A stretch of 32,894 bases of DNA from Chitinophagaceae bacterium. Lineage in GTDB: Bacteria > Bacteroidota > Bacteroidia > Chitinophagales > Chitinophagaceae. Below are positions 7,361 through 31,557 of the stretch, piece after piece. The notes beneath the pieces are model-generated. The model saw only the letters and a list, made by a program, of their open reading frames with translations. It did no database searches and had not been told where the DNA came from. Positions within the stretch are counted from its first letter, which is position 1; the number at the start of each line of letters is the position of its first letter. The stretch is from positions 1 through 32,894 of the forward strand of contig CANGBH010000022.1 in the NCBI GenBank assembly GCA_947451935.1, read 5' to 3'. The translations under genes and the position numbers were made by a program.

Positions 7361-8233
7361 CTAGAATGTACATTGATGGCCCTTAACGCCAGCAATTCCG
7401 GTCGAAACGTTGAACAAATTACCACTTTGCGGATATTCTTTCAACTGCTCTGGCGTCATATTCTTTTGTGCAGTAGTAATGATTAAGGAGCCCAAATCCT
7501 CACCAGCAAAAGCACATGAAGTTACATGAGGGGCGGGAACATAAATCTTTGAGATCAAATCACCCGTATTAGGGTTCCATCTATATACTCCATATCCACC
7601 CCAATGAGCAACCCATAGCATACCCTCTGCATCAATAGTCATCCCATCGGGCGTTCCCATTTCGATAGGAATTTTGACAGCGACTTTTTCAAAAACAATT
7701 TCACCAGATTCTTGATTGAATACGTAAGATCTGATTTCTTGTGTTGGACTATCAATAAAATACATTCTTGAATTATCCAAGGACCATACTAAACCATTAG
7801 AGATGGTGACATTTTTTATTTTAGGAATTGGCGATGATCCTAGTTCCACTGCATATAAAACTCCCCTTTCGAAATCATGATCTTCGTGTGTGCTACCAAC
7901 CCAAAGTCTACCTTTCACATCACAACCTCCATCATTACAACGATGGTTTTTGATGGTAGGTTCTAAATCAAATAAGGATTCTATCTTACCTGTTTCCGTG
8001 TCAAATTTTACAATTGTTGTTTTCAGTGCAATCAACAAATGATCGCCAGTTGATTCTACAATCAATGAAATATCTTCATTGAATTTCCATTGCCGAGTTT
8101 CTTTTGTAATCCAATGGAATGAATATAAAACATGACCAGTGATGTCTACCCAAAAGCAGCATAGTTTTCGGTGATGCCAAGTTGGACTTTCTCCAAGCAT
8201 GCACTGAGAAGAAACCAATGATGTTGCAGTCAT
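7361..8233 (-). CDS. SMP-30/gluconolactonase/LRE-family sugar lactonase
   Basis: A 290-residue six-bladed-propeller protein of the SMP-30/regucalcin family, whose members hydrolyse aldonolactones using a divalent metal. The expected metal ligands are visible: Glu15 in LGESPTW, Asn100 in NHRCNDGG, Asn146 in TISNGLVWS and Asp196 in GTPDGMTID. No signal peptide is present, so it should be cytoplasmic. It is the last gene of a tightly spaced minus-strand cassette (18 bases after the isomerase). Its presence suggests that one of the two neighbouring dehydrogenases makes a lactone, which this enzyme opens to the sugar acid. The exact sugar is unknown. Confidence 0.9.
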   Translation of the reverse strand: MTATSLVSSQCMLGESPTWHHRKLCCFWVDITGHVLYSFHWITKETRQWKFNEDISLIVESTGDHLLIALKTTIVKFDTETGKIESLFDLEPTIKNHRCNDGGCDVKGRLWVGSTHEDHDFERGVLYAVELGSSPIPKIKNVTISNGLVWSLDNSRMYFIDSPTQEIRSYVFNQESGEIVFEKVAVKIPIEMGTPDGMTIDAEGMLWVAHWGGYGVYRWNPNTGDLISKIYVPAPHVTSCAFAGEDLGSLIITTAQKNMTPEQLKEYPQSGNLFNVSTGIAGVKGHQCTF

Positions 8234-8251
8234 GTATTAAATATTAGAATA

Positions 8252-9136
8252 CTAAGGCCAGTATACTGGAATTTTTTTGCGAAGGAAGTTAACACTACGT
8301 TCCAATTGATCCATTCCATCAACACCATCTTCAATGCTGATCCAGCTATCAAACCCTACTCGCTTCAATTCAGTAAAAATAGCATCGTAATCGTTTAATC
8401 CTTTTCCAATTTCCCCATGGCTCAATCGCTTTGCATAACCAGCAGCGCCACCTTCTTCATTTCGTAAGTCTTCGATTGTTCCTTCTTTTAAATAACGATC
8501 ACTTGCATGCATCGTTACTACACGATTCGAAACACGCTTCAATAATTCGATTGGATCTTCACCAGCTAAATACGTATTGCTTGGATCATAATTTACACCA
8601 AAAAAAGGATGGTGAATACTATCTACTAATTGACAAAAGACATCCATCTTTTGTGCAAATTCTGGGTATGTCCAAAAATCATCTTTATAATGATTCTCGA
8701 TAATGAGTGTAATATTTCTTTCCTGAGCATACGGCAAACATTCGTTGATACAATCTGCCGCCAACTTAACTCCTTCATCAATTGTTAATTCAGGGCGACG
8801 TTGTCCAGATAGCACACGACAATAACTTCCGCCTAGTGCATACGTCATATCAATCCATCTCTTTTGCTTTTCAATTTCAATATCACGAAATGATTTATCA
8901 GGATGTGTAAAATCTGGAGAGCAACACATCATGGGAATTACTTTACCATGATCTTCAACTTGCTTTCTAAATTTCGGCCAATTGGATTCGTCGCTCATTT
9001 CTAAAAAACCAGCATACCATTCTAAACCATCGATATCTAGTTTACAAGCAAGTTCAATCCATTCTGACACACGCATTGTTCCATCCTTACATAAGGCTTG
9101 CATAAATGCTTTGGGGAATACGGCTAATTTGGGCAT
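8252..9136 (-). CDS. Sugar phosphate isomerase/epimerase-like TIM-barrel protein
   Basis: A 294-residue protein of the xylose isomerase-like/AP endonuclease 2 superfamily, cytoplasmic (no signal). The four metal ligands typical of the fold can be seen: Glu147 in IIENHYKDD, Asp184 in VNYDPSNTYL, His210 in VTMHASDRY and Glu269 in WISIEDG. The HGEIGKGLND stretch is the usual HGxxGxG segment. Known members are epimerases and isomerases of keto sugars such as tagatose/psicose or 3-ketoglycosides, and some cleave or dehydrate substrates, so the reaction here is open. It lies 12 bases after the SDR gene in the same operon. Confidence 0.88.
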   Translation of the reverse strand: MPKLAVFPKAFMQALCKDGTMRVSEWIELACKLDIDGLEWYAGFLEMSDESNWPKFRKQVEDHGKVIPMMCCSPDFTHPDKSFRDIEIEKQKRWIDMTYALGGSYCRVLSGQRRPELTIDEGVKLAADCINECLPYAQERNITLIIENHYKDDFWTYPEFAQKMDVFCQLVDSIHHPFFGVNYDPSNTYLAGEDPIELLKRVSNRVVTMHASDRYLKEGTIEDLRNEEGGAAGYAKRLSHGEIGKGLNDYDAIFTELKRVGFDSWISIEDGVDGMDQLERSVNFLRKKIPVYWP

Positions 9137-9148
9137 TGAAACTATTTT

Positions 9149-9949
9149 TTATTTTTTTACTGGAATTGTACTGGTGTCCTTTGGTGGGTTACGTCCTATG
9201 AAAGGATGTTGTTCTAAATCGACCACCTGACCACTAATTGGACCACTTTCATCAGCTAACCAATAAATGGCAGCTGCTGCAATTTCGCTTGGCCATAGAA
9301 TTCTTCCAGCAGGTGCATACACCGGGGGGAGATCTTTATACCAATCTTCTGCCAAGCCATGTTGTTTTTTCCGCTCACGTTCTGTTTCAGTTAACACCCA
9401 GCCTGGATTAATTTGATTTACACGAACGCCGTTTTCTCGATGAAGTGTATCACCCAAATTACGTGTCATAGTCATTAAGCCACCTTTTGAAATACTATAA
9501 GCTAGAAGGTTAGGTTCTCCGCTATAGGCATTGACAGAGCCAATATTCAAGACACAACCATGCTGTGTTGTTAAATAGGGCAATGCTGCTTTTATTAACA
9601 AAAAGGGTGCAATGGTATTTACATTTAATAGACGTTGCAGGTATGCTTTATCTGTTGATTGAATATTGGACGAGGCTACAATAGCAGCATTATTCACTAC
9701 GGCATCGAGTTTCCCAAATGCATTGATTGCAGCTTCCACAAGTTTCTCAGGAGATCCATCTAAACTTAAATCTGAAATATGCAACACTGCATTTTTTTCA
9801 CCTAATTCATTTACAACTTCTTTACCCCATTCTTCTTCTAAGCCATGAATGACAACCTTTGCTCCTTCGGCAACACATCGTAAAGCAATGGCTTTACCAA
9901 TTCCGGTAGTGCTACCTGTAATAATAATGACCTTATTTTCTAATCTCAT
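9149..9949 (-). CDS. SDR-family NAD(P)-dependent oxidoreductase
   Basis: A 266-residue classical short-chain dehydrogenase. It shows the cofactor motif TGSTTGIG (residues 11-18), the NNAAIV strand (87-90), Asn111, and the catalytic Ser138, Tyr151 and Lys155 (YSISK). The ATG at 9949 is preferred over an upstream GTG at 9970: it puts the Rossmann strand at residue 6 as usual and leaves a 4-base gap after the preceding dehydrogenase. It has no signal peptide. In context it probably oxidises or reduces a sugar or sugar-acid hydroxyl, feeding or following the SMP-30 lactonase. The substrate cannot be told from sequence. Confidence 0.9.
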   Translation of the reverse strand: MRLENKVIIITGSTTGIGKAIALRCVAEGAKVVIHGLEEEWGKEVVNELGEKNAVLHISDLSLDGSPEKLVEAAINAFGKLDAVVNNAAIVASSNIQSTDKAYLQRLLNVNTIAPFLLIKAALPYLTTQHGCVLNIGSVNAYSGEPNLLAYSISKGGLMTMTRNLGDTLHRENGVRVNQINPGWVLTETERERKKQHGLAEDWYKDLPPVYAPAGRILWPSEIAAAAIYWLADESGPISGQVVDLEQHPFIGRNPPKDTSTIPVKK

Positions 9950-9953
9950 ACGA

Positions 9954-10988
9954 TTAAGGTTTAAGCACACTTTTTACTACTTCACCTTTGTGCATTTTTT
10001 CAAATGCTTCATGCCATTGATCAATTGGCCATACACCACCTATGATAGGTTTAACATCAAGTGCTCCACTTGCTAACAAGCCAATGACTTTTTCCCAGAT
10101 AGGCCAGTTATGACTGAAGCTTCCTTTAAGTGTCACATTTTTTTGAACCAATGGATCCAATGAAAATCCTAATGGTTGAGGGCCCCATCCTACTTTAGTA
10201 ATGTGGCCATTTGGACGAACCAATTGCATAGCAATCTTTAATGTAATACTTGCGCCAGCTGCATCAATAATGAAATCAGCACCAAGTCCATCTTTCTTCA
10301 TTGCCCATTCCGTAGCATCACCAACGATTGGTATGCAACCATACTGTTTTGCTATATTAAGTCGATGAAGATCTGATTCTAATCCAACAATTGCTACTTC
10401 AGCACCACAGAGTTTAGCCATCGCTGCACAAAGAATTCCTATGGTACCAGGGCCAAGAACGATTACACGATCACCTGGTTTAATATGTGAATTATTTACT
10501 ACTGCATTATAGGCAACACAACAAGGCTCTGTTAAACAGGCTTGTTCAAATGGCAATTCATCCGGAACATGATGCAGGCATCTAGCTGGTACCTTTACAT
10601 ATTTTGTCATCGCTCCATTAACACCATATCCAAATCCTTTTCTATCTGGATCTAGATTATATAATCCAGTTCTTGACAAAGGGCTAGCGGGATTAATGAT
10701 TGCTGCTGTTTCACTTACCACGCGATCACCGGCTTTCCAACCAGACACTCGACTTCCTAATTCAGCAATAATTCCGCCAAATTCATGACCTAATACAACT
10801 GGATAATTTACAGTCCAACTGTGATCAGATGTCCATTGATGAAGGTCACTTCCACACACGCCAACATTCATGACTTCAAGCAACACATCATCTTCGCCGA
10901 TGATAGGCTTTTCGATTTCTCTAATTTCTACTGAACCTTTTTCTTGTGAAAAATTTACTACTCCGGGAGACGTTTTTGGTATAGACAT
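9954..10988 (-). CDS. Zinc-type medium-chain alcohol/polyol dehydrogenase lacking the structural-zinc cysteines
   Basis: A 344-residue MDR-family dehydrogenase, related to sorbitol/threonine dehydrogenases. Catalytic-zinc ligands are present: Cys45 (GVCGSD), His68-Glu69 (GHEFGG) and Glu154 (LTEPCC). The nucleotide motif GPGTIG is near residue 180. The loop that normally holds four cysteines for structural zinc reads ETAAIINPASPLSRTG and then YNLDPDRKGFG, with no cysteine in it. The ATG at 10988 is used; a TTG two codons upstream is unlikely. It sits 21 bases after the HUMPS-family gene and 4 before the SDR gene, so all are probably co-transcribed. A sugar or sugar-alcohol substrate is inferred from context. 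Confidence 0.9.
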   Translation of the reverse strand: MSIPKTSPGVVNFSQEKGSVEIREIEKPIIGEDDVLLEVMNVGVCGSDLHQWTSDHSWTVNYPVVLGHEFGGIIAELGSRVSGWKAGDRVVSETAAIINPASPLSRTGLYNLDPDRKGFGYGVNGAMTKYVKVPARCLHHVPDELPFEQACLTEPCCVAYNAVVNNSHIKPGDRVIVLGPGTIGILCAAMAKLCGAEVAIVGLESDLHRLNIAKQYGCIPIVGDATEWAMKKDGLGADFIIDAAGASITLKIAMQLVRPNGHITKVGWGPQPLGFSLDPLVQKNVTLKGSFSHNWPIWEKVIGLLASGALDVKPIIGGVWPIDQWHEAFEKMHKGEVVKSVLKP

Positions 10989-11009
10989 ATACAAAAGTTT
11001 ATAAACGAA

Positions 11010-11711
11010 TTATTTCATGGCAATATCGCCATATGCGTGAATTTTTTCACATATTAATCTTAGTGATGCTTCTAAATTTCCATCAGCAGTTTTAAATGCA
11101 TCAGCATCTATTGTAAGTGGAGCGCCAAGCACTACAAGTGGAGCGCCAAACAATGGACATTGAATAGCTTGTTCCAATGATAAGCCTCCTACTGCTTGAA
11201 CAGGAATTTTTACCGCATCTACTACTTCTTTCAATTGATCCAGCGGGCTTGGCATACGTAAGCCTTGTGCTGCGATTCCTCTTCGCTCATCATAACCAAT
11301 ATGATGAATAACATAATCACATCCTAAGTCTTCAAGCCATTTAGCTGCTTCAACCATATCCGGACAACCAAGGTTGTCGCCCATTACTTTTGCGCCAAAG
11401 TCGCGACCTGCAGCAACGACACACTTAATTGTTTCTGCATGAGCGCGTGCCATCACTACTACATGTGTAGCACCAGCTTTTGCCATCATTTCAGCTTCAA
11501 GGTATCCACCATCCATCGTTTTCAAATCAGCCACAATCGGAACTCCGGGAAATGCTTCGCGTAGTTTTTTTACGCCATGTAGTCCTTCGGCAAGAATCAA
11601 AGGGGTTCCAGCCTCAAGCCAATCTACACCAGCTCTCATGGCCATCGCTGCAGTTTCAAGCGCTTCGTCAATATTTGTTAGGTCAAGTGATATTTGTACA
11701 ATTGGCTTCAT
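11010..11711 (-). CDS. HUMPS/OMPDC-superfamily protein (hexulose-6-phosphate synthase or ketogulonate-6-phosphate decarboxylase-like)
   Basis: A 233-residue (beta/alpha)8 protein with the superfamily signature DxKxxD (Asp62, Lys64, Asp67 in ADLKTMDGG). Asp10, Glu33 (WLEAGTPL) and His136 lie where the decarboxylase/synthase active site has them. The HHIGYDERRG segment looks more like hexulose-phosphate synthase (GYD) than ketogulonate-phosphate decarboxylase, so the two remain open. Known reactions are aldol addition of formaldehyde to ribulose 5-phosphate, its reverse, or decarboxylation of 3-keto-L-gulonate 6-phosphate. No 6-phospho-3-hexuloisomerase is next to it. It is the first gene of the metabolic cassette, after a terminator. 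Confidence 0.85.
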   Translation of the reverse strand: MKPIVQISLDLTNIDEALETAAMAMRAGVDWLEAGTPLILAEGLHGVKKLREAFPGVPIVADLKTMDGGYLEAEMMAKAGATHVVVMARAHAETIKCVVAAGRDFGAKVMGDNLGCPDMVEAAKWLEDLGCDYVIHHIGYDERRGIAAQGLRMPSPLDQLKEVVDAVKIPVQAVGGLSLEQAIQCPLFGAPLVVLGAPLTIDADAFKTADGNLEASLRLICEKIHAYGDIAMK

Positions 11712-11847: not shown

Positions 11848-13287
11848 TTACAACGACACTCCCCATCCTGCTCTATACTCACGTTTTACAAACTGATTTG
11901 CTTCATCAAAGTTTGTAATTTTCATTTCCTTAGCGTTCCAATATAATTTTTTTCTTCCAAGGAAATCAGCATCAGAATCTTGTGTCTTTTTAGAATTCTC
12001 AAGTCCCCAACTTCTAATAGCAAGGTTACCAATCAAAATACTTTCAGTGAAAGGACCAGCATATTCAAATGGAGAACTAGTGGTTGCATTACCATGACCA
12101 GCGATACATGCATTTACCCACTGCAAGTAGTGCCCTTCTGGAACACGTGCAATGGTTTCTTTTGGCATAGTTGTTTCAGCCATTAGTTTTGATGGCAATA
12201 GACGTGGTCTTTCACCATAACAATCCACCATCATCTTTCCTTTAGTTCCGATGAAAAGTGCTCCGCCATCATCCCCACCAAATGGTTCACCATCGAGAAG
12301 TTCTTCTGGCATTGGCGGAAGCAATCCACCATCGTACCAAGAAACTTTAATATCTCCTTTACCATCTTTGCGAGGATATTTCAAATGTATCATTGATGCA
12401 GCAGGGAATCCATCAGGATACTTTGCTTCATCACCAGCTGGCGTCCAACTTGTTGGAATAGAACATTCAACTTCAGTTGGGAAATCAATTGGAAGAATCC
12501 TGAACACTGGATCCATCATATGACATGCCATATCTCCAAGGGAACCTGTTCCAAATTTGTTCCATCCTCTCCAACTCCATGGGTGATAAGCAGGATTATA
12601 GTCAACATGTTGAGCTGGGCCTAGCCATAGGTTCCAGTCTAAATCTTTAGGCACATCAAACTTACCTGTTGGTGTTGGCAATCCTTGTGGCCAAATTGGT
12701 CTGTTTGTCCATACTTGAACAGTATGCACTTCACCAATCAAACCAGCGTCATACATTTCTTTTGCTTTACGCACACCGTCGCTTGATCCACCTTGATTAC
12801 CCATTTGAGTAATTACATTATATCTTCCTGCAGCTTTCGCCATTAAGCGTGCTTCATATATATCGTGTGTTAGAGGCTTTTGGCAATAGACATGCTTTCC
12901 TAATTGCATAGCAGAAAGTGATGCGATTGCGTGAACGTTATCAGGAACAGAAACAGAACATGCATCTATATGATTCTTTTCTTTGTCGAGCATCTCTCTG
13001 AAGTCCTTATAATAACTTGCTTTAGGGAAACTTTTTCTTGAATCAACAGCTCTGCTTTCATCAACATCACATAGTGAAACGATATTCACTCTTGGGCTTG
13101 TTGCGAAATTACTTAAATCGCTTTTCCCTTTACCACCAGCACCGATACCTGCAATGTTTAATTTATCACTTGGGGCAATAAATCCTTTGCCCAATACATG
13201 ACGAGGAACAATCATAAAACCACTAGCAGCTAGTGCCGTGTTTCTAACAAAATTCCTTCTTGACAATTCGCTTTTTTTACCTGACAT
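11848..13287 (-). CDS. Tat-exported Gfo/Idh/MocA-family oxidoreductase
   Basis: A 479-residue NAD(P)-dependent sugar oxidoreductase with a twin-arginine leader (SRRNFVRN, residues 9-16), so it should fold with cofactor before export. The Rossmann motif GIGAGGKG is at 47-54. The family EKP triad appears as CQKPLTHD (Lys137), and the C-terminal domain holds GDMACHMMDP with the likely catalytic His256. Exported relatives of this Bacteroidota type are common in glycan loci, and some members oxidise or reduce the 3-position of glycosides. It is divergently transcribed from the DUF1080 gene, a family linked to 3-keto-glycosides, which suggests joint action. A terminator separates it from the downstream cassette. 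Confidence 0.93.
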   Translation of the reverse strand: MSGKKSELSRRNFVRNTALAASGFMIVPRHVLGKGFIAPSDKLNIAGIGAGGKGKSDLSNFATSPRVNIVSLCDVDESRAVDSRKSFPKASYYKDFREMLDKEKNHIDACSVSVPDNVHAIASLSAMQLGKHVYCQKPLTHDIYEARLMAKAAGRYNVITQMGNQGGSSDGVRKAKEMYDAGLIGEVHTVQVWTNRPIWPQGLPTPTGKFDVPKDLDWNLWLGPAQHVDYNPAYHPWSWRGWNKFGTGSLGDMACHMMDPVFRILPIDFPTEVECSIPTSWTPAGDEAKYPDGFPAASMIHLKYPRKDGKGDIKVSWYDGGLLPPMPEELLDGEPFGGDDGGALFIGTKGKMMVDCYGERPRLLPSKLMAETTMPKETIARVPEGHYLQWVNACIAGHGNATTSSPFEYAGPFTESILIGNLAIRSWGLENSKKTQDSDADFLGRKKLYWNAKEMKITNFDEANQFVKREYRAGWGVSL

Positions 13288-13513: not shown

Positions 13514-14155
13514 ATGCGAATAATGCGAATCAATTTCAGCTCCATAGTAATATTTTTTAGCGCCCTTTTCATCTGTAGCAGTGCAACCCTAGATCATGGA
13601 ACAAAAAACAAACAAAATGAAGAAGGAGAATGGATCTCCTTATTTAACGGAAAAGACCTTACAGGATGGAAAGCAAGAGGAAAGGCAAAATGGAAGGTTG
13701 TAAATGGTGTATTAACGGGTTCACGTGGTAGAGGACATCTATATGCAGATCCTATTATAACGGACTTCGAAGCAAAAGGGGAATTCAGGATAACAGATCA
13801 AGGACATGGAGCGAATAGTGGTTTTTATTTTAGGGCGAATGAAGACCCTACAGAACCCAAAGGATTTCCTGAAGGATATGAAGCCCAAATTTGCAATAAC
13901 CAAGAAGCGTCTACTGGTTGGTTATGGAAACCTGGTAATCCAACTGGACGCGCATCAGCTTTACTAACAAAAGATGGAGAGTGGTTTTCTATGCGTGTTA
14001 GGGCTGTTGGTGAACATATACAAATTTGGGTAAAAGATTCACTGGTGACAACACACGATGATACAGAATTTAAAGAAGGACATTTTGTGATTCAATGCCA
14101 CAACGATAAAATGTTGGCTGAAGCACGAAACCTATATTATCGAGTAATAAAATAG
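13514..14155 (+). CDS. DUF1080 family protein (3-keto-disaccharide hydrolase-like), exported
   Basis: A 213-residue protein with an N-terminal Sec-type signal (hydrophobic SIVIFFSALFIC) and one jelly-roll DUF1080 domain. Family hallmarks are WISLFNGKDLTGWK near residue 40 and NSGFYFR near 110. Family members act on 3-keto-glycosides, cleaving after oxidation at carbon 3, and are usually periplasmic. It is first in a four-gene operon whose products all carry export signals and is divergent from the exported Gfo/Idh/MocA gene. The start is ambiguous: a nine-base near-tandem repeat gives two ATGs three codons apart (13514 and 13523), and both give a plausible signal. Confidence 0.9.
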   Translation: MRIMRINFSSIVIFFSALFICSSATLDHGTKNKQNEEGEWISLFNGKDLTGWKARGKAKWKVVNGVLTGSRGRGHLYADPIITDFEAKGEFRITDQGHGANSGFYFRANEDPTEPKGFPEGYEAQICNNQEASTGWLWKPGNPTGRASALLTKDGEWFSMRVRAVGEHIQIWVKDSLVTTHDDTEFKEGHFVIQCHNDKMLAEARNLYYRVIK

Positions 14156-14199: not shown

Positions 14200-15552
14200 A
14201 TGAATAATTTCTCCTTTCGCTTGATACTAATTTGTTTACTATGTTCAATTCGTATATCCATCATTGCACAGGATCGAACTGAATTAATTAGCGAAACAGA
14301 TTTTCATTTTTTACAAGACATGACCAAGGTAATTATTGATAGCTCGCGCATACTTCCAGGTCAACGTATATCAACATCTTTCGGTCCAAATAATCTTGGC
14401 ATCACGCTTATTCGCCCTGGTGCAAGAGATGCATATCCATCCTTTTGGATAAGAGACTACGCTATGTCCATTGAAACAGGATTCATTTCAATGGAAGAGC
14501 AGAAAAATATGTTACTGCTCACTGCTATAACTCAATGTGACCAAACATGGATAACAAAAGGTGGTGCGATGGTTCCACGAGGTGCAATTGCCGATCATAT
14601 CCGAATAGATGATGGTCTTCCCATTTATTATCCTGGAACATATGAATATGTAAAACAAGGCGATGGCCGTTTTGGATTTACTCCACCCTACTGCGATCAA
14701 TTCTACTTCATCCATATGGCCAACCATTATATTGAGCAAACACATGATTCAAATTTTCTTTTAGAGGAAGTCAATGGCATACGACTAATAGATCGCTTAG
14801 AAAATGCATTTGCAGTTGTTCCAACTAACGGAGAAACTGAATTGGTCTATACCAACGACGCTTTTCGCGGGGTAGATTTTGGATTTAGAGATGCTATAAT
14901 TATTACAGGCGATCTATGTTTACCTTCCATTTTAAAATATAAAGCGGCGCTTCATTTATCAAATTGCTTTAGACTAATAGAGCAAAAACAAAAATCAGCT
15001 CACTATCTAGAAATTGCTAAAAAAATTAAATCGTCCATAGCTAGTGCATTTCAAAATGAGAAAGGAATGCTGAAATCATCTACTTGCAAAAGTCAACAAG
15101 CTGATGTCTGGGCAACTGCATTAGCTATTTATTATGATATGCTTAATAGAGAACAAACAACAAAAGCATCTAGGGCACTAGCCTTGGGGTATAAAGGTGG
15201 CGCTTTGTCCTATCATGGAAACATTAGACATGTTATGACATTTGACGACTTCAACAAGGAAACAATGTGGGAGGTTTCACTTGCTGAGAAAAACACCTAT
15301 CAAAATGGTGCGTATTGGGGAACACCCGTTGGTTGGGTATGCTATGCCATGGCTAAAACTGACTTAGCGAGCGCGAAAAAGCTTGCGGCTGAATATATCG
15401 CCGATTTGAAGTTGCATGATTTCAGAAAAGGAGGAGAAGAAGGTGCACCATTTGAATGCTTCACTAGTAATGGAGGTCAACAGAATCCACTCTATATGAC
15501 GACCGTGGCAAGTCCATATATAGTATTTAAAAAAATGACTGAAAATAATTGA
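14200..15552 (+). CDS. Exported six-hairpin glycosidase-like protein, family uncertain
   Basis: A 450-residue protein with a Sec signal peptide cleaved near SIIAQ (residues 21-24). It has helix-rich character and motifs seen in (alpha/alpha)6-barrel glycosidases: PSFWIRDYAMS (residues 80-90, candidate Asp86), PYCDQFYFI, and a late NGAYWGTPVGW stretch. I cannot place it in a named glycoside hydrolase family. In the operon it follows DUF1080 by 44 bases and precedes the YhcH-like gene by 15. A role in cleaving an oligosaccharide in the periplasm is inferred. It may instead be a lyase or an inactive binding form. Confidence 0.7.
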   Translation: MNNFSFRLILICLLCSIRISIIAQDRTELISETDFHFLQDMTKVIIDSSRILPGQRISTSFGPNNLGITLIRPGARDAYPSFWIRDYAMSIETGFISMEEQKNMLLLTAITQCDQTWITKGGAMVPRGAIADHIRIDDGLPIYYPGTYEYVKQGDGRFGFTPPYCDQFYFIHMANHYIEQTHDSNFLLEEVNGIRLIDRLENAFAVVPTNGETELVYTNDAFRGVDFGFRDAIIITGDLCLPSILKYKAALHLSNCFRLIEQKQKSAHYLEIAKKIKSSIASAFQNEKGMLKSSTCKSQQADVWATALAIYYDMLNREQTTKASRALALGYKGGALSYHGNIRHVMTFDDFNKETMWEVSLAEKNTYQNGAYWGTPVGWVCYAMAKTDLASAKKLAAEYIADLKLHDFRKGGEEGAPFECFTSNGGQQNPLYMTTVASPYIVFKKMTENN

Positions 15553-15567: not shown

Positions 15568-16215
15568 ATGAAAAAATACTTTTTATTTATATTAATACTT
15601 ATTGTCGCGAATTCAACTGCGATCAACGCACAAACAACGTCACGTGTACTAAATAAACATGACCAGAAAAATAATAGAAAAGCTACACATTGGTTTCATC
15701 AGCGAAAATGGGCCAATGGATTAACCTTAACACCACATGAAAGCACAAACATTAACCTATTCCACGAACAATACTTGTCAAACCAAGAAGCATGGGATAG
15801 TGCGTTTTCGTTCTTAAAAAACCAGCATTTAAATGAACTAGTGGCAGGCAAATATTCGATACTTGGGGATCGTGTTTTTGCAACCATTTCAGAGACGTCA
15901 GCAAGAGAAAAAGACAGTGCAGTATGGGAGTCTCATAGACAATATATAGATATTCATTATGTAATTCGTGGCTCTGATCAAATTGGAATAACGGATAGTA
16001 CCCAAGCAAAAATTATTAAGCCGTATACAGTTGATGCCACTCACTATACGGCAGAAGGTACGTTTTACAAATCAGATCCTTCGATCTTTTTTATACTATT
16101 CCCTGTAGATTTACATAAGCCTAATATTAAGTTGAACGACAATCAACTTGTAAAGAAATTAGTCATAAAAGTACAGGTTGCAGAAAGTTCGCTAAAGCAA
16201 AAAAAGATTCAGTAA
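15568..16215 (+). CDS. YhcH/YjgK/YiaL-family protein (sugar anomerase-like) with signal peptide
   Basis: A 215-residue protein. Residues 1-22 form a clear Sec signal (MKKYFLFILILIVANSTA, cleavage near INA-Q). The remainder is a cupin-like YhcH/EbgC domain with the metal-site region WESHRQYIDIHYV (Glu121, His123, Asp128, His130) and FPVDLHKPN (Asp181, His183). Characterised relatives are cytosolic (about 150 residues) and act as anomerases or otherwise in sialic acid and related sugar catabolism; here the extra length is the signal and linker. It sits 21 bases before an exported aldolase of the N-acetylneuraminate lyase superfamily, supporting a sugar-acid role. The periplasmic location is the unusual point. 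Confidence 0.85.
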   Translation: MKKYFLFILILIVANSTAINAQTTSRVLNKHDQKNNRKATHWFHQRKWANGLTLTPHESTNINLFHEQYLSNQEAWDSAFSFLKNQHLNELVAGKYSILGDRVFATISETSAREKDSAVWESHRQYIDIHYVIRGSDQIGITDSTQAKIIKPYTVDATHYTAEGTFYKSDPSIFFILFPVDLHKPNIKLNDNQLVKKLVIKVQVAESSLKQKKIQ

Positions 16216-16236
16216 TTTTATTTTAATAATGCATGA

Positions 16237-17319
16237 ATGACTGTAAAAAACCATTCAACTAGACGTGATTTTTTAGGCAAGGTTTCTGTCCTGCCAATTG
16301 GACTTGCACTAGCAGGACTTCCTAGTCAACATCTATTTTCACAAATAACAAAAAGCAATAATATCTTCGAATCAAATCATTTAATTATGTCAGATAACAA
16401 CGAAAAGAAATTTGTGCCGGTTATGGTTACCCCTTTCACACAAGAAGGGAAGATTGATTTTAAAACATTATCTGCCTTAATTGATTTTTATATTGCAGCA
16501 GGTGTAAAAGGTTTTTTTGCAAACTGCCTTAGCAGTGAAATGTACGCCTTAACTCCTGAAGAAAGACTATCCTTAACTAGGCATGTCGTTAAGCATGTAA
16601 ATGGCAGTATGCCAGTTGTTGCTACCGGATCCTTTGGCGACACTAACAAAGAGCGTGCTGAATTTGCTAAACAGATTTACCATACAGGAATCAATGCTGT
16701 GATTCTCATAACGAGTCACTTCGCAAAAAAAGAAGAGTCAGATGAAATCATGTTGGCGAACTTTCATGAATTCTTTGACCTTACCGATAATATTCCAATG
16801 GGCACTTATGAATGTCCCGCACCGTACAAGCGTATTCTAACCCCTCAAGCATTCACTTCATTGCTTGAGACCAATCGTTTGGTATATCATAAAGATACCT
16901 CACTCGATTTCCCCTTAGTAAAAGCAAAACTAGATTTAATAAAAGGCAATCGAATTGAATTTTATGATGCGCATACTCCAAACACCATGAATGCCTTGCA
17001 ACATGGGGCTAAAGGAATGAGTGCTATTGCTGGCAATTTTTATCCTGAGATTTTTGTTTGGATGTGTAATCATGCTAATGATCCTAAGCTACAAAAAGAA
17101 GTAGCATGGCTTCAAGCCGAATTAACCAAAGCCGACTCAATTATTTCTACTTCATATCCAATGAGCTCGAAATATTTCTTACACAAACGTGGACTTAATA
17201 TACTTCCTGTTAGCAGAACAAGTCCTACCCCATTGACTAGTCAAGAAATGCAAACATTGGATGGCGTGCATGCAACCTTCATGGGTTGGTGTGATCGTTT
17301 AGGAATAAAAGCGGTATAA
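16237..17319 (+). CDS. Dihydrodipicolinate synthase/N-acetylneuraminate lyase-family aldolase with Tat signal
   Basis: A 360-residue protein. Residues 1-35 form a twin-arginine leader (STRRDFLGK, then a hydrophobic stretch). The (beta/alpha)8 barrel follows from about residue 58. Schiff-base Lys219 (VYHKDTS) and the conserved active-site Tyr191 (GTYECPAPYKR) are present. The usual GTTGE/GSTGE loop is replaced by NCLSSEM (96-102), so it is neither a typical DapA nor a typical NanA, and the keto-acid substrate may differ. An internal Met51 would yield a cytosolic form of near-normal length. It is the last gene of the operon and ends exactly where the convergent sialidase-like gene ends. Confidence 0.88.
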   Translation: MTVKNHSTRRDFLGKVSVLPIGLALAGLPSQHLFSQITKSNNIFESNHLIMSDNNEKKFVPVMVTPFTQEGKIDFKTLSALIDFYIAAGVKGFFANCLSSEMYALTPEERLSLTRHVVKHVNGSMPVVATGSFGDTNKERAEFAKQIYHTGINAVILITSHFAKKEESDEIMLANFHEFFDLTDNIPMGTYECPAPYKRILTPQAFTSLLETNRLVYHKDTSLDFPLVKAKLDLIKGNRIEFYDAHTPNTMNALQHGAKGMSAIAGNFYPEIFVWMCNHANDPKLQKEVAWLQAELTKADSIISTSYPMSSKYFLHKRGLNILPVSRTSPTPLTSQEMQTLDGVHATFMGWCDRLGIKAV

Positions 17320-18408
17320 TTATTTCAGAAGATCCTTTTTTGTTCCCATCCAAAATGCGATGTTTTTGCGTTGCCATGTATAACATACAGCCACGGTATC
17401 TCCAAAATTAATCAACCCAGGATAAGAGAATTCATCATCTCCTTTGCCCTGTTCTATATTTAGATTCTTTGGCCACGTAAGTCCATTATCAAATGAAACG
17501 CCTAAAAGAAGTGGTGCTCTATCACCATCATTTCTGTTATCAGGGTTATAGGCTAAAACCAATACATCTCCAGGTAGTTTTGTCACATCTATCCCACTGT
17601 TTGGATTAGGCAATGTTGTCTTATAAATCGGGGCCCATGTTTTCCCATAATCTTTTGAATCACTTCGACAAATAATGCCTAATTCACTACGAATAAGCAT
17701 ATGAATATTTCCAGGAGTTGACTCCCATAATGTAGGTTGGATAAGCTCTTTGTTTTGCAAGCTTGTATCGGCTAGTTTCAGGTAAGGAGTTGCCTGCCAT
17801 GTTTTTCCACTGTCAATACTTCTGTCTGTAAACACATGATATCCTTTATACTCATGCGAAGAGCCTGCTAACCAAGAACCATCAGATAGAACAATGGGTT
17901 TACTACGAACAGGACCTCTACCGCCTTTATCACCTTTAACAAGTTCGTATGCGTCAGTCCATGTATCGCCATTATCATCTGAAGTCTTAACCCATGTTTC
18001 CCAATGTTCAATTTCCTTCCCTACTTTGAAAAATAAAAATAGTTTCCCTGCAGGTGATTGAAATAAAACAGGATTCCAGTGTGCATCATTTCTGATTTTT
18101 GCAATTTGTTTTGGAGCAGACCAATGACGAGGAGATCCTTTAACCATCCAAATGCCAACATTATCATTCTTTTCTTTCTCCCCAGCAAACCAGGCAACGA
18201 TAAAATTATTATCTCTCAATTTAACCAAGGTTGAAGCGTGGCATTCTTTAAAGGGAGGATTCTCGCCAGCTACAAATTCTTTTACAGGCAGTGTGTCTGC
18301 TAACCCGACGGAGAGGCTATCGGCAGCGACAGTTTTGTTGGCCTGTTGACTACAACTTGAGATAAATAAAATACAGCATGCTAAGAGTAAAGAATAATTA
18401 TTTTTCAT
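17320..18408 (-). CDS. Sialidase-fold (BNR/Asp-box) exo-glycosidase-like lipoprotein
   Basis: A 362-residue lipoprotein with lipobox ISSC (Cys19). Four Asp-box repeats are visible: SDDNGDTW (143-150), SIDSGKTW (197-204), SKDYGKTW (251-258) and SFDNGLTW (305-312), marking a six-bladed sialidase fold (BNR_2 type). The N-terminal strand reads CHASTLVKLRDNN and lacks the FRIP-type arginine motif of true GH33 sialidases, so sialidase activity is not assured. It is transcribed toward the aldolase operon, with stop codons touching. Placement beside YhcH-like and NAL-like genes fits release of an acidic sugar. Confidence 0.85.
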   Translation of the reverse strand: MKNNYSLLLACCILFISSCSQQANKTVAADSLSVGLADTLPVKEFVAGENPPFKECHASTLVKLRDNNFIVAWFAGEKEKNDNVGIWMVKGSPRHWSAPKQIAKIRNDAHWNPVLFQSPAGKLFLFFKVGKEIEHWETWVKTSDDNGDTWTDAYELVKGDKGGRGPVRSKPIVLSDGSWLAGSSHEYKGYHVFTDRSIDSGKTWQATPYLKLADTSLQNKELIQPTLWESTPGNIHMLIRSELGIICRSDSKDYGKTWAPIYKTTLPNPNSGIDVTKLPGDVLVLAYNPDNRNDGDRAPLLLGVSFDNGLTWPKNLNIEQGKGDDEFSYPGLINFGDTVAVCYTWQRKNIAFWMGTKKDLLK

Positions 18409-24150: not shown

Positions 24151-25431
24151 TTAGCTAGACTTTATCCGATGTCCTTTCGCTGCATAATAGAAAATAACCA
24201 AATAGCAAGGAACTACCATCCAATAAGCATGATGAGGAGAGAAATGATCAGCGATTCGACCATAAATTAACGGCAAAACTGCACCGCCACCAATAGCCAT
24301 GATAAGTATTGACGATCCTGTTTTGGTAAAACTTCCTAAACCGCTAAGTGCTAATGGCCAAATAGAAGGATACATCAACGCATTGGCTAATCCAAGCAAC
24401 GCAATAAATACAACCGAAACCATTCCAGAAGTAAACAAGGCTGTTAGGCAAAATAAAATCCCTGCTAGGGCAGAAAATTTCAATGCCCGTTCTTGTGATA
24501 TAAACTTCGGAATAAAGAGGATTCCAATAAAATACCCCAACAACATACCTCCAAGAGTGAAACTCGTAAAAAACTTTGCAGTAGCTAACGGAATCCCTTG
24601 TGAAGAACCATAAAGTATTATTGTATCCCCAGCAATCACTTCAACGCCAACATAGAGAAACAGGGTAAAAGCGCCTAGTAACAAATGTGGAAATTGAAAA
24701 ATACTTGTCTTTTGTATTGAATCAGAAGGGTCGAGCCCTTCGTCTTCCTCATCTGGATTAATTTCAGGCAATCCAGAAAAATAGATTAACACTGCTAATA
24801 TTACCATAACAACAGTCATGGCAACATAAGGCGCTATGATTTTTCCCGCTAAGTTTTGTAAGGCAATAATTTTTTCTTGCGCACCCATTCTTAGTAGGTC
24901 CGTTTTAATTTGATCGGTATTGTCTAGAATGATTGATCCTAAGATGATTGGAGCAAGTATACCAGCCACGCCATTTGAAACACCCATCATGCTAATGCGT
25001 TTTGCTGCACTATTTCTTGGCCCCAACATGACCACATAGGGATTTGCTGCAGTTTGCAAAATAGCCAACCCACTTCCTTGTATAAATTGTCCTATTAAAA
25101 ACAACAAATATGTTCTAGAATGTGCAGCAGGAATAAACATTGTTGTACCAATGGCTATTAGTAATAAGCCCAATGCCATACCATGCCTAAATCCTGTTTT
25201 TTTTAATAATGCTGCAGATGGAAGAGCGAGTACTAAATAAGAAATATAAAATGAAAATGCAATAAGATAAGATGAAACATTATTCAACTCGCAGGTAATC
25301 TTAAGATAAGGTATCAACACAGATCCCAACCAAGTCACAAAACCAAATACAAAGAATAAAACACCAATTATAAAAAGGTATTTGAAACGATGCTGACTCG
25401 AAATTGCTAATGTTGATTCTGGATTATTCAT
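24151..25431 (-). CDS. FucP/GluP/NagP-type MFS sugar:proton symporter
   Basis: A 426-residue inner-membrane protein with about 12 predicted transmembrane helices. The FucP-family signature GSGLAILQTAANPYVVMLGP lies in the first half, and IWPLALSGLGSFTKTGSSIL late in the protein is also typical. Relatives carry fucose, glucose/galactose or N-acetylglucosamine with protons. It begins three bases after the MurQ stop, so the two are co-translated; this suggests an amino-sugar or N-acetylmuramic acid-related substrate, which is inference from the neighbour. It is the only inner-membrane sugar importer in the window and may also serve the SusCD systems. Confidence 0.9.
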   Translation of the reverse strand: MNNPESTLAISSQHRFKYLFIIGVLFFVFGFVTWLGSVLIPYLKITCELNNVSSYLIAFSFYISYLVLALPSAALLKKTGFRHGMALGLLLIAIGTTMFIPAAHSRTYLLFLIGQFIQGSGLAILQTAANPYVVMLGPRNSAAKRISMMGVSNGVAGILAPIILGSIILDNTDQIKTDLLRMGAQEKIIALQNLAGKIIAPYVAMTVVMVILAVLIYFSGLPEINPDEEDEGLDPSDSIQKTSIFQFPHLLLGAFTLFLYVGVEVIAGDTIILYGSSQGIPLATAKFFTSFTLGGMLLGYFIGILFIPKFISQERALKFSALAGILFCLTALFTSGMVSVVFIALLGLANALMYPSIWPLALSGLGSFTKTGSSILIMAIGGGAVLPLIYGRIADHFSPHHAYWMVVPCYLVIFYYAAKGHRIKSS

Positions 25432-25434
25432 TAC

Positions 25435-26241
25435 CTATAATAATGTATCAAGCGCTTTTCTAACACTCCCATTAGCGAGTAATAATTCTTTAGCCTTATC
25501 ATAATCAGTAATGGAAGATTTCTCCATTAGCATTTTAACTGCACGATCAGTAATCTTATCATTGATTAACTTAACATTCACCATACGATTGTCTTCTACC
25601 CTTCCAAGTCGAACCATGGTTGTGGTACTAATCATATCGAAGAGCATTTTCTGCGCTGTTGCGCATTTCATTCGTGTACTTCCACAAATGAATTCAGGAC
25701 CTGTAATCACTTCAATAGGGAAATCGGCATACTGAGCAATAGGCGAATCGGGATTACTCACAATACATCCAGTAGTTACATTATTTTCTTTACATGCCAT
25801 TAAGGCTGACAACACAAATGGAGTTGTTCCACTTGCTGAAATGCCAATAACCATATCCTTATCTGAAATGTTTTTTTCTAGAAGCATTTGCCATCCAGCC
25901 TCAGTATCATCTTCTTTTTCTTCTAATGCTTGCACTAAATTTTCTTTTCGCCCAGCAAGTATTACATCAACAATACCTGGCTCAATACCATAGGTGGTTG
26001 GCAATTCTATTATATCTAAAACCGATAACCTTCCTCCACTTCCTGCACCTAAATAGAACATTCTACCTCCGGCTTCAAGGTGACTGACAACCGACTCAAT
26101 TAAGGCATTAATTTGTGGTAATGATTTTTCAATTTCAAATGCAACTGTCTTATCCTCAGCATTAATCGCTGCCGTCAATTCTGCTATGCTTTTCTTTTCA
26201 AGATCTCTATTCTTTCCGGGTTGTTCTGTAATTTTTATCAT
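25435..26241 (-). CDS. murQ: N-acetylmuramic acid 6-phosphate etherase (MurQ)-like SIS protein
   Basis: A 268-residue cytosolic SIS-domain protein. It carries GAGSGGRLSVLD (66-76) with Glu79 in ELPTTYG at the place of the catalytic Glu of MurQ, and the C-terminal signature GPEFICGSTRMKCATAQK followed by RMVNVKLIND. MurQ removes D-lactate from MurNAc 6-phosphate, giving GlcNAc 6-phosphate, in cell-wall recycling. Family members are usually about 300 residues; this one lacks some of the N-terminal helix region. No kinase (AnmK/MurK type) is in the window to make its substrate. It is first in a two-gene operon with the MFS transporter and divergent from the cytochrome lipoprotein operon. Confidence 0.88.
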   Translation of the reverse strand: MIKITEQPGKNRDLEKKSIAELTAAINAEDKTVAFEIEKSLPQINALIESVVSHLEAGGRMFYLGAGSGGRLSVLDIIELPTTYGIEPGIVDVILAGRKENLVQALEEKEDDTEAGWQMLLEKNISDKDMVIGISASGTTPFVLSALMACKENNVTTGCIVSNPDSPIAQYADFPIEVITGPEFICGSTRMKCATAQKMLFDMISTTTMVRLGRVEDNRMVNVKLINDKITDRAVKMLMEKSSITDYDKAKELLLANGSVRKALDTLL

Positions 26242-26458: not shown

Positions 26459-29146
26459 ATGTATACAAAATTACGTTCAGTCACTTTTTTAGTAGCCATT
26501 TATTGTCTCGTTCAATGTTCAACTTCATGTAACAACACAAATGAGGTTGTTGAAATCTCAAAGGATCCAAAGATTGCAGCATTAAAACTACCAGCTGGTT
26601 TTAAAGCAGATCATTTATATAGTCCTGGTGAAAACAACCAAGGATCTTGGGTTGCAATGACCTTTGATGACAAAGGCAGAATGATTGCATCAGACCAATA
26701 CGGCAATCTATATCGCCTAGTTATACCTGCTATTGGCGCAGATACATCTAAAGAAAAAATCAAAGTTGAAAAGATTGAAGTGGTGTTACCTAATGACACT
26801 TCATCTATTGCTAGAAGAATTGGTTATGCACATGGCCTACTTTATGCATTCAACAGTTTATACGTAATGGTGAATGATGAAGGTGATCAAGAAAATTCTA
26901 AGCCAAGTGGTTTATATAGACTTCAAGACACAAACAATGATGATCAATTTGATAAAATCACCTTGTTAAGAAGATTAGAAGGTGAAGGTGAACATGGTCC
27001 ACATAGCGTTGTATTATCACCAGATGGTAAATCACTTTATGTAATAGCAGGAAACTTTACTAAGATTCCTAAAATGGATACTTATGCCGCAGCAGCTGTT
27101 TCAGAAATCGACAATTTACTTCCATTAGTAAGAGATCCAAATGGCCACGATGGCACAGTAAATACACACGGAGGTTGGATTGGACAATTGAATCCAGATG
27201 GATCGAATTTCAATCTTGTTAGTTCAGGATTTAGAAATCCTTTTGACCTTGCTTTCAACGACGCAGGTGATATTTTCACTTTTGATTCTGACATGGAATG
27301 GGATTTTGGTTTGCCATGGTATAGACCAATTCGCATATGTCATGTTCCAAGTGGAGGAGAATTTGGATGGCGCCCAGGAACCGATAAATGGTCACCTACC
27401 AATGCTGATAATTTACCAGCCTTACTTAATGTTGGACAAGGTTCACCAACTGGTGTATTCAGTGGACAAAATGCACATTTCCCAGAAAAATACCGTCGTT
27501 CAATTTTTACATTCGATTGGACTTTTGGTGTAATGTATTCTGTACAACCTATTCCAAATGGCGCTACCTATACCCCTAAGGCAGAAGAATTTATTTCAGG
27601 ATCTCCCCTTCCTCTAACTGATGGAACAGTTGGTCCAGATGGCGCAGTATATTTTCTTACAGGTGGTCGTAGAATTGAATCGGACTTATACCGTGTATAC
27701 TACAAAGACAATAAAGAGAATACGGAGAAGCTAGCAGCTACTCCATTAACAGAGGCTCAAAACATCAGAAAGAAATTAGAAACATACCATTCAGCACCTA
27801 AGCCAGATGCTATTGATGTTGCTTGGCCTTATCTTAATAACTCAGATCGCTTTATTCGCTATGCAGCACGTATTGCTATGGAACATCAACCTATAAACCT
27901 ATGGGAAGCAAAAGCGTTAAACGAAAAAGATCCAGTAATACTTACACAGGCAGCTATTGCGTTAGCGCGATTGAATGACAAAAATGTAAAAGATAAATTA
28001 CTACAAGCACTTACTGCAATTAATTTATCATCACTTAATGATGATCAAAAAATTGATGTAGTAAGAGCATATGAATTAATTCTTATTCGTCTTGGTAATC
28101 CAAGTGATGATGTAAAAAATCAAGTCATCAATCATCTTGATGCACAATACCCTGCTTCATCAAATAACTTGAATAGGTCATTAAGCAAAGTGTTACTTTA
28201 TCTTGATGCGCCGAAGGCTGTAGAAAAAACAATGACACTCCTTGCTAGTGCAAAAGATGACCCCAACGATCAGAAAACATTTATGGAGTCGTCAGATCTT
28301 ATTCTACGCAATCCACAATATGGTCTTGATATAGCAGGCATGCTTTCAAGTGTTCCTCCAAAGCAACAAACTTTTTATGCAACCGCTTTAAGTCAAGCCA
28401 AGAATGGTTGGACTCCAGCCTTACAAGAAAATTATTTCAAATGGTTCTATAAAGCATTTGGATATAAAGGTGGATATAGCTTCGTTGGATTCATTAACAT
28501 CATTCGTAAGAATGCATTGAAAAATGTTGCAAAAGACAAACAAGAATATTTCAATACTATTTCTGGAGACTCATTGGTTGTTCGTGCACAAATGGGACTT
28601 GCTATTTCAGATGTTCAACCAAAAGGACCTGGAAAAGATTGGGAGGTTGATACTGCTTTAGCATTGATAAAAGACGGATTAAGTGGGCGCAATTTTGAAC
28701 AAGGTAAAGCTATGTTCTCTGCTAGCCTTTGTGTTAAATGCCATAGCATGCGTGGAGAGGGTGGTATAGCTGGTCCAAACCTTACTAATGTAGGTACACG
28801 CTTTTCTTACAAGGACATGCTTGAAGCCATCATTGAACCGAATAAAACCATATCTGATCAATTTGCTGCTATTGTTTTCTACCTTAAAGATGGTAGTTCT
28901 GTAGTAGGTAAAATGGTTAATGAGGATGCAGATAAATATTATATTGGTCAAAATCCATTCGCCATGCAAAATGTAAAAGAGATCAATAAGAAAGATGTAA
29001 TTCGTACAAGACTTTCTGAGACTTCGTTTATGATGGGTGGACTAATTAACCGATTAAATGGTGAAGAATTAAAAGACCTTCTAGCCTATTTGAAATCTGG
29101 TGGCAATCCTAAGGACTCCATATTTATAGCAAAAAGCGTTAAGTAA
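26459..29146 (+). CDS. Beta-propeller dehydrogenase-like lipoprotein with C-terminal cytochrome c (PVC-type)
   Basis: An 895-residue protein with a lipoprotein-like signal (candidate Cys20 or Cys24). The N-terminal half is a soluble-dehydrogenase-like propeller (LKLPAGFKADHLY, SGFRNPFDLAF, PDGAVYFLTGG). A helical HEAT-like middle follows from about 430. The C-terminus is a PVC-type heme domain with CVKCH (Cys758 to His762) and a likely axial Met in FMMGGLINRL, ending KDLLAYLKSGG. Such proteins are thought to oxidise sugars or polyols in the periplasm and pass electrons to cytochromes. Its stop overlaps the next start (TAATG), so the pair is translationally coupled. Confidence 0.9.
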   Translation: MYTKLRSVTFLVAIYCLVQCSTSCNNTNEVVEISKDPKIAALKLPAGFKADHLYSPGENNQGSWVAMTFDDKGRMIASDQYGNLYRLVIPAIGADTSKEKIKVEKIEVVLPNDTSSIARRIGYAHGLLYAFNSLYVMVNDEGDQENSKPSGLYRLQDTNNDDQFDKITLLRRLEGEGEHGPHSVVLSPDGKSLYVIAGNFTKIPKMDTYAAAAVSEIDNLLPLVRDPNGHDGTVNTHGGWIGQLNPDGSNFNLVSSGFRNPFDLAFNDAGDIFTFDSDMEWDFGLPWYRPIRICHVPSGGEFGWRPGTDKWSPTNADNLPALLNVGQGSPTGVFSGQNAHFPEKYRRSIFTFDWTFGVMYSVQPIPNGATYTPKAEEFISGSPLPLTDGTVGPDGAVYFLTGGRRIESDLYRVYYKDNKENTEKLAATPLTEAQNIRKKLETYHSAPKPDAIDVAWPYLNNSDRFIRYAARIAMEHQPINLWEAKALNEKDPVILTQAAIALARLNDKNVKDKLLQALTAINLSSLNDDQKIDVVRAYELILIRLGNPSDDVKNQVINHLDAQYPASSNNLNRSLSKVLLYLDAPKAVEKTMTLLASAKDDPNDQKTFMESSDLILRNPQYGLDIAGMLSSVPPKQQTFYATALSQAKNGWTPALQENYFKWFYKAFGYKGGYSFVGFINIIRKNALKNVAKDKQEYFNTISGDSLVVRAQMGLAISDVQPKGPGKDWEVDTALALIKDGLSGRNFEQGKAMFSASLCVKCHSMRGEGGIAGPNLTNVGTRFSYKDMLEAIIEPNKTISDQFAAIVFYLKDGSSVVGKMVNEDADKYYIGQNPFAMQNVKEINKKDVIRTRLSETSFMMGGLINRLNGEELKDLLAYLKSGGNPKDSIFIAKSVK

Positions 29147-30213: not shown

Positions 30214-30286
30214 AGATCAATCATTTTAAAAAGAGAAACTTAATTACATTACTGCTCCAATTATTTAAACCAGTTAACTAGAATCA

Positions 30287-31501: not shown

Positions 31502-31557
31502 AAAATCACTTAATCTGATCACTCTTCAGAACACTTGGCCATAAAAATTAAACGACT

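What the first reader, a model, noticed from the sequence alone, without database searches (positions are those of the whole stretch)
15568..18408. Sugar-acid enzymes of usually cytosolic families carry export signals and sit by a sialidase-fold lipoprotein
A YhcH-family protein with a Sec signal and a DHDPS/NAL-family aldolase with a Tat signal are adjacent, and a sialidase-fold lipoprotein converges on them. In the classical scheme sialidase releases the sugar acid outside, while anomerase and lyase act inside. Here all three appear to be extracytoplasmic, suggesting periplasmic cleavage of a nonulosonic or other 2-keto sugar acid.
Basis: partly seen in the sequence, partly recalled or inferred. 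Interest (0 to 1): 0.65.

Follow-up and report, generated by a model that had tools for sequence, protein, structure and literature searches.

The report
Exported sugar-acid lyase and anomerase pair
A bacterium of the Chitinophagaceae carries, side by side, exported versions of two enzymes that normally work together inside cells to open and split keto sugar acids, and the pair recurs in its relatives, so this step of sugar-acid digestion seems to have moved outside the inner membrane.

Summary
YhcH-family protein (15568-16215, Sec-type signal), DHDPS/NAL-superfamily protein (16237-17319, twin-arginine signal) and BNR_2 lipoprotein (17320-18408, minus) are intact and under purifying selection. 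The Tat-bearing DHDPS forms one strongly supported clade (12 rows, 100/98) nested inside a cytosolic family that usually sits beside a sodium:solute symporter. RR and F are invariant in 12/12, and the internal Met51 start is not shared by the other 11 rows. Sec-YhcH is directly adjacent in 9/12 Tat loci and 0/63 others.

The Schiff-base Lys and catalytic Tyr are kept. The residues with which NanA holds the sialic-acid tail are not, so a sialic-acid lyase is unlikely. The 'sialidase' has the GH33 propeller and nucleophilic Tyr, but His for the first triad Arg and Gln for the catalytic Glu, invariantly; it is not a canonical sialidase and is not enriched beside the Tat pair.

Half of the cytosolic sister loci carry rhamnogalacturonan-II-type genes, pointing to KDO or DHA as ancestral substrate; no Tat locus does, so the substrate here is open.

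Best reading: an extracytoplasmic anomerase-plus-aldolase module for a 2-keto-3-deoxy sugar acid. New variant of a known kind.

The parts
15568..16215 (+). YhcH/DUF386-family protein with Sec-type signal peptide and a conserved ~45-residue spacer (WxxxxxWxxGL...) before the cupin core; predicted extracytoplasmic sugar-acid anomerase
   Evidence: PF04074 and TIGR00022 above cut-off; candidate metal residues E121/H123/H183 invariant in 9 exported orthologues; dN/dS 0.11
16237..17319 (+). DHDPS/NAL-superfamily class I aldolase with Tat signal (RRDFLGK), predicted extracytoplasmic 2-keto-3-deoxy sugar-acid lyase
   Evidence: PF00701; K219 and Y191 align with NanA K165/Y137; TIM-barrel model Z ~34 to DapA/YagE/HOGA/NAL structures; Tat clade 100/98
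16237..16386 (+). Tat signal and linker (residues 1-50)
   Evidence: RR and F invariant 12/12, K 11/12; pLDDT <50 for residues 1-51; no synonymous change in this stretch against L014 while the rest of the gene has 39
17320..18408 (-). BNR_2 six-bladed-propeller lipoprotein, GH33 fold, non-canonical active site; converges tail-to-tail on the aldolase
   Evidence: PF13088; model pLDDT 88, Z 37 to Micromonospora sialidase; H57 for Arg68, Q224 for Glu260, R240, R297 and Y329 kept, all 27/27
14200..15552 (+). Exported protein of unknown family, 15 bp upstream of YhcH, same strand; probably co-transcribed
   Evidence: No Pfam, NCBIfam or PDB match; no homologue in 294 other sampled genomes of the class; Sec-type N-terminus
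13514..14155 (+). Exported 3-keto-disaccharide hydrolase-family protein (DUF1080), first gene of the plus-strand run
   Evidence: PF06439; 44 bp before the next gene
11848..13287 (-). Tat-exported Gfo/Idh/MocA oxidoreductase, recurrent neighbour of the Tat-DHDPS
   Evidence: PF01408; within three genes of 6/12 Tat-DHDPS vs 4/63 others

Best explanation
The two plus-strand genes encode an extracytoplasmic version of the NanQ-NanA partnership. Exported YhcH opens the ring of a 2-keto-3-deoxy sugar acid; the Tat-exported class I aldolase, which needs only its own lysine and no nucleotide cofactor, splits the open form into pyruvate and a shorter aldose, which then cross the inner membrane through ordinary transporters. 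The aldolase arose by export of a cytosolic lyase that works behind a sodium:solute symporter and whose likely substrates are KDO or DHA, so the substrate is most likely an acid of that type. The neighbouring BNR_2 lipoprotein may release it from a glycan but is not an obligatory partner. Shown here: genes, signal motifs, clade, adjacency, catalytic residues, predicted fold. Inferred: localisation, ring opening, cleavage, substrate, uptake of products.
For: Tat-DHDPS is one clade (100/98) inside the cytosolic family. RR/F invariant in the Tat clade and Lys219/Tyr191 kept in all 39 sequences. Sec-YhcH adjacent in 9/12 vs 0/63, and the six best-scoring exported YhcH in 294 genomes are exactly the six beside it. 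The window genome holds no cytosolic copy of this lyase (only a 23%-identity DHDPS-family match) and no close relative of its symporter (best 22-29%), so the exported enzyme has no cytosolic double; TatC present. YhcH gives the open form to the aldolase in E. coli (PMC8141875). Substrate class: sister cytosolic loci carry a BT_1020-like propeller, GH141, GH78-BNR_2 fusions and D-threonate-kinase-like/PdxA genes, at least one of these clusters in 19 of 38. Second module of the same logic: L121 has Sec-YhcH, a signal-bearing RraA-like aldolase, a Tat enolase-superfamily protein and an MFS transporter.
Against: No biochemical or localisation data. Signals were read by motif only. RG-II-type markers are absent from the Tat loci (0/12) and the BT_1020 propeller from the genome. 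Some pocket-region positions differ between the Tat clade and its cytosolic sisters (H304 lost in 12/12, H246 to C in 8/12), so specificity may have shifted. 3 of 12 Tat-DHDPS lack an adjacent YhcH.
Confidence: 0.6

Rival explanations
1. Sialic-acid scheme outside the cytosol: the lipoprotein is a sialidase, YhcH a Neu5Ac anomerase and the aldolase a Neu5Ac (or other nonulosonate) lyase, with ManNAc imported by the NagP-like MFS.
For: Gene families match the nan set; GH33 fold Z 37; NagP-like MFS and MurQ in the window, GH20 family beside two other Tat loci.
Against: NanA D191, E192 and S208 are replaced by T, P and I; NanA equivalog model scores 56 against a cut-off of 281; first triad Arg and catalytic Glu of GH33 replaced in 27/27.
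Confidence: 0.12
2. Exported lyase for a uronate- or aldonate-derived 2-keto-3-deoxy acid (KDG-like), with YhcH acting on uronic acids; the BNR_2 gene is incidental.
For: Other exported YhcH genes sit by GH88-like, alpha-fucosidase, MFS, cupin and Tat enolase-superfamily genes; a Tat Gfo/Idh/MocA gene is enriched near Tat-DHDPS.
Against: BNR_2 genes lie within three genes of 29/75 members of this DHDPS family, including GH78 fusions, which suits a ketosidic sugar acid better.
Confidence: 0.2
3. The Tat/Sec forms are exported but have lost the lyase/anomerase reaction and serve as binding or sensing proteins.
For: Some pocket-region positions have changed in the Tat clade.
Against: Lys, Tyr and most of the conserved SSE and YECP motifs are kept in all; dN/dS 0.04.
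Confidence: 0.07
4. The lyase is cytosolic through the internal Met51 start.
For: ATG at residue 51 of the window protein.
Against: No ATG at the corresponding place in the other 11 clade members; the RR motif is invariant; the N-terminal 50 codons are conserved against L014.
Confidence: 0.03

Closest known systems
NanQ(YhcH)-NanA partnership of E. coli (PMC8141875)
   Same: A DUF386 anomerase encoded beside, and feeding, a DHDPS-superfamily class I aldolase; Schiff-base Lys and Tyr kept
   Different: Both proteins carry export signals here; glycerol-tail residues of NanA absent; about 19% identical to NanA in the structural alignment; YhcH has an extra N-terminal segment
Cytosolic SSS-linked DHDPS-family lyase of Chitinophagaceae (uncharacterised; L069, L070, L020 and others)
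   Same: About 54-62% identity, same catalytic motifs, the group inside which the Tat clade is nested
   Different: No signal, next to a sodium symporter instead of YhcH, often in loci with RG-II-type genes
GH33 sialidases (Micromonospora, 1eus/1wcq)
   Same: Six-bladed propeller, Tyr nucleophile, second and third Arg
   Different: His for the first Arg, Gln for the Glu partner, acid/base Asp not clearly alignable; 16-20% identity
E. coli NanM (periplasmic sialic-acid mutarotase)
   Same: A periplasmic ring-opening enzyme for a keto sugar acid
   Different: Different family (background knowledge); its lyase partner stays in the cytosol (PMC8141875)

Membership tests
N-acetylneuraminate lyase (NanA) | Schiff-base Lys165 and Tyr137 | tested here: met
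   K219 and Y191, 39/39 sequences
N-acetylneuraminate lyase (NanA) | Residues binding the sialic-acid glycerol tail (D191, E192, S208) | tested here: not met
   T247, P248, I264 in the window; I264 in 39/39; the first two are mostly V/T and A/P in the Tat clade
N-acetylneuraminate lyase (NanA) | NCBIfam equivalog cut-off | tested here: not met
   56 bits vs 281 (NF003164), 33 vs 382 (TIGR00683)
DapA (dihydrodipicolinate synthase) | NCBIfam equivalog cut-off | tested here: not met
   77.7 bits vs 206 (TIGR00674)
DHDPS/NAL superfamily (PF00701) | Pfam gathering score and TIM-barrel fold | tested here: met
   100 bits vs 22; model Z ~34
YhcH/YjgK/YiaL (DUF386) | Family score | tested here: met
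   PF04074 112 vs 26.5; TIGR00022 87.5 vs 45.5
NanQ N-acetylneuraminate anomerase | NCBIfam equivalog cut-off | tested here: not met
   69.9 vs 160 (NF040884)
NanQ N-acetylneuraminate anomerase | Metal-dependent anomerase activity | not testable with these tools
   Candidate ligands E121, H123, H183 invariant in exported orthologues, at conserved positions of HI0227
GH33 sialidase | Six-bladed propeller fold | tested here: met
   Z 37.2, rmsd 2.2 over 305 residues to 1wcq
GH33 sialidase | Arg triad | tested here: not met
   R240 and R297 align with R276 and R342, but R68 is His57, 27/27
GH33 sialidase | Tyr nucleophile with Glu partner | tested here: not met
   Y329 aligns with Y370, but E260 is Q224, 27/27
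Tat substrate | Twin-arginine motif before a hydrophobic stretch, and a Tat system in the genome | tested here: met
   RR-x-F invariant 12/12; TatC 202 bits
Tat substrate | Actual export | not testable with these tools
   Needs fractionation or N-terminomics

The most novel reading that the evidence does not exclude
Chitinophagaceae have moved whole steps of sugar-acid catabolism (ring opening, dehydration, aldol cleavage) outside the inner membrane, more than once and with unrelated enzymes: Tat-DHDPS plus Sec-YhcH here, and Tat enolase-superfamily plus Sec RraA-like aldolase plus Sec-YhcH elsewhere, so that pyruvate-forming cleavage happens in the periplasm and small products are imported.
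Probability: 0.35. Interest if true: 0.75.

Novelty: new variant of a known kind. Interest (0 to 1): 0.55.

Why it matters
Keto sugar acids are textbook examples of compounds taken up first and cleaved inside. An exported anomerase-aldolase pair would mean that pyruvate is released outside the inner membrane, removing the need for a dedicated sugar-acid transporter and possibly sharing products with neighbours. It also makes testable predictions about the uncharacterised DHDPS-family lyase and BNR_2 family that recur, in the sister loci, in rhamnogalacturonan-II-type gene clusters; no gene for KDO or DHA cleavage in such clusters was found in the papers searched here.

Tried and rejected
Sialic-acid lyase reading: rejected on NanA tail-binding residues and equivalog scores. 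DapA: rejected on score. Met51 start: rejected. BNR_2 as an obligatory third member: not enriched beside the Tat pair. RG-II reading for the window itself: no BT_1020 propeller in the genome and no RG-II-type marker in the Tat loci. The upstream 450-aa protein gave no Pfam, PDB or genome homologue. Bacteroidetes-type promoter pattern: one hit in the window, fewer than expected by chance. No Rfam element in the window. Literature searches for a Tat-exported DHDPS-family lyase, KDO aldolase genes or exported DUF386 gave nothing directly relevant; most subscription journals are not held.

Full report
OBSERVATION. The three genes are present and intact at the stated coordinates. Pfam gives YhcH/DUF386 (3e-32), DHDPS (1e-28) and BNR_2 (6e-64). 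The YhcH begins with a hydrophobic Sec-type signal, the DHDPS with STRRDFLGKVSVLPIGLALAGL, and the BNR_2 protein with a lipobox. Only motif reading and simple hydrophobicity were available for signals, but conservation supports them (below). The window lies in a 2.56-Mb, 186-contig Chitinophagaceae assembly that encodes TatC. Against a second assembly (L014) dN/dS is 0.04, 0.11 and 0.025 for DHDPS, YhcH and part of BNR_2, so these are maintained genes.

EVOLUTION OF THE EXPORTED LYASE. Relatives were collected from sampled genomes of the class and family and from genome contigs and their neighbourhoods read. Two forms exist: a ~313-residue protein without a signal, and a ~360-residue protein whose extra N-terminus is a twin-arginine signal. 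A maximum-likelihood tree of 76 rows puts 12 Tat forms in one clade (100/98) nested in the cytosolic family; further Tat-like forms lie outside it (L030; L108/L110), and the tree needs three changes of the label. RR and F are invariant in the 12. The window's Met51 ATG has no counterpart in the other 11.

NEIGHBOURS. A YhcH with a signal is directly adjacent to 9 of the 12 Tat forms and to none of 63 others. The rows are related, so the Fisher value (2e-9) overstates independence, but the six best-scoring exported YhcH proteins among 294 family genomes are exactly the six that lie beside a Tat-DHDPS (313-364 bits; next best 256). Cytosolic forms instead adjoin a sodium:solute symporter in 37 of 63 (0 of 12 Tat forms). 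The window's genome has no cytosolic copy and no close symporter relative. In the window and in L066 (same genus) the BNR_2 gene abuts the lyase tail-to-tail. BNR_2 genes in general lie within three genes of 5/12 Tat and 24/63 other members: a family-wide association, not one peculiar to the exported pair.

CATALYTIC RESIDUES. Against E. coli NanA (sequence checked against 3lbc) the Schiff-base Lys and catalytic Tyr are kept in all 39 sequences, while NanA's glycerol-tail residues D191, E192 and S208 are not. The model is a TIM barrel from residue ~52, equally close to DapA, YagE, 4-hydroxy-2-oxoglutarate aldolase and NAL structures (Z 32-34). The BNR_2 model (pLDDT 88) has the GH33 fold (Z 37). 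Profile alignment to the Micromonospora sialidase (sequence checked) shows R276, R342 and Y370 kept (R240, R297, Y329), R68 replaced by His57 and E260 by Gln224, each in 27 of 27 sequences. It should be called a sialidase-fold protein, not a sialidase.

SUBSTRATE. The cytosolic sister loci give the best clue. They contain GH78-BNR_2 fusions, a BT_1020-like propeller, GH141, Fe-ADH, a second DHDPS, PdxA and D-threonate-kinase-like genes; at least one of four such marker clusters occurs in 19 of 38. From background knowledge, BT_1020 and GH141 belong to rhamnogalacturonan-II degradation, whose side chains hold KDO (capped by rhamnose) and DHA. Cleaving DHA by retro-aldol would give pyruvate and D-threuronate, one reduction from D-threonate, which fits the kinase and dehydrogenase; this is inference. 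No Tat locus has these markers, and some pocket-region positions differ in the Tat clade, so the exported lyase may act on another 2-keto-3-deoxy acid. Tat loci more often have the Tat Gfo/Idh/MocA protein, GH20 and a MurQ/NagP/BadF set.

MECHANISM. In E. coli YhcH supplies the open form of Neu5Ac to the aldolase (PMC8141875). The pairing of the same two families, both with export signals, suggests the same division of labour outside the inner membrane. A class I aldolase needs no diffusible cofactor and YhcH only a metal, so both can work there. A second, unrelated exported set, Sec-YhcH with a signal-bearing RraA-like aldolase, a Tat enolase-superfamily protein and an MFS transporter (L121), suggests that the theme is wider. 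Exported YhcH itself is widespread in the family (about 40 long-form matches; 18 of 18 read have signal-like N-termini).

VERDICT. Observation confirmed; interpretation partly supported: an exported anomerase-lyase pair is well supported, sialic acid as substrate and the sialidase role are not. New variant of a known kind.

Noticed in passing
7361-11711: SGL lactonase, xylose-isomerase-like, SDR, zinc ADH and OMP-decarboxylase-family genes form a minus-strand run; four of them (not the lactonase) recur at roughly 78-94% identity in several other Chitinophagaceae loci, far higher than most neighbouring genes: a conserved pathway of unknown substrate.
   Followed up: partly
24151-26241: MurQ (N-acetylmuramic acid 6-phosphate etherase) and a NagP-like MFS transporter pair; in relatives (L020, L017) a BadF-type kinase and the cytosolic DHDPS with its symporter follow.
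   Followed up: partly
L069:3817-14416: GH78 rhamnosidase fused to a BNR_2 domain, followed by symporter, DHDPS, Fe-ADH, second DHDPS, PdxA and D-threonate-kinase-like genes: possible KDO/DHA pathway of rhamnogalacturonan-II use.
   Followed up: partly
L121:1672-6608: Signal-bearing RraA-like aldolase, Tat enolase-superfamily protein, MFS transporter and Sec-YhcH in a row: a second candidate exported sugar-acid module.
   Followed up: partly
14200-15552: Exported 450-aa protein without any database or genome homologue found, inside the plus-strand gene run.
   Followed up: partly
16237-16386: No synonymous difference from L014 in the first 50 codons although the rest of the gene has 39; perhaps a constraint on translation start or RNA.
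   Followed up: no
26459-32892: Large lipoprotein with cytochrome c domain, DUF4432 protein, a 404-aa protein without Pfam match and a GDSL/DUF7133 protein on the plus strand, of unclear role.
   Followed up: no
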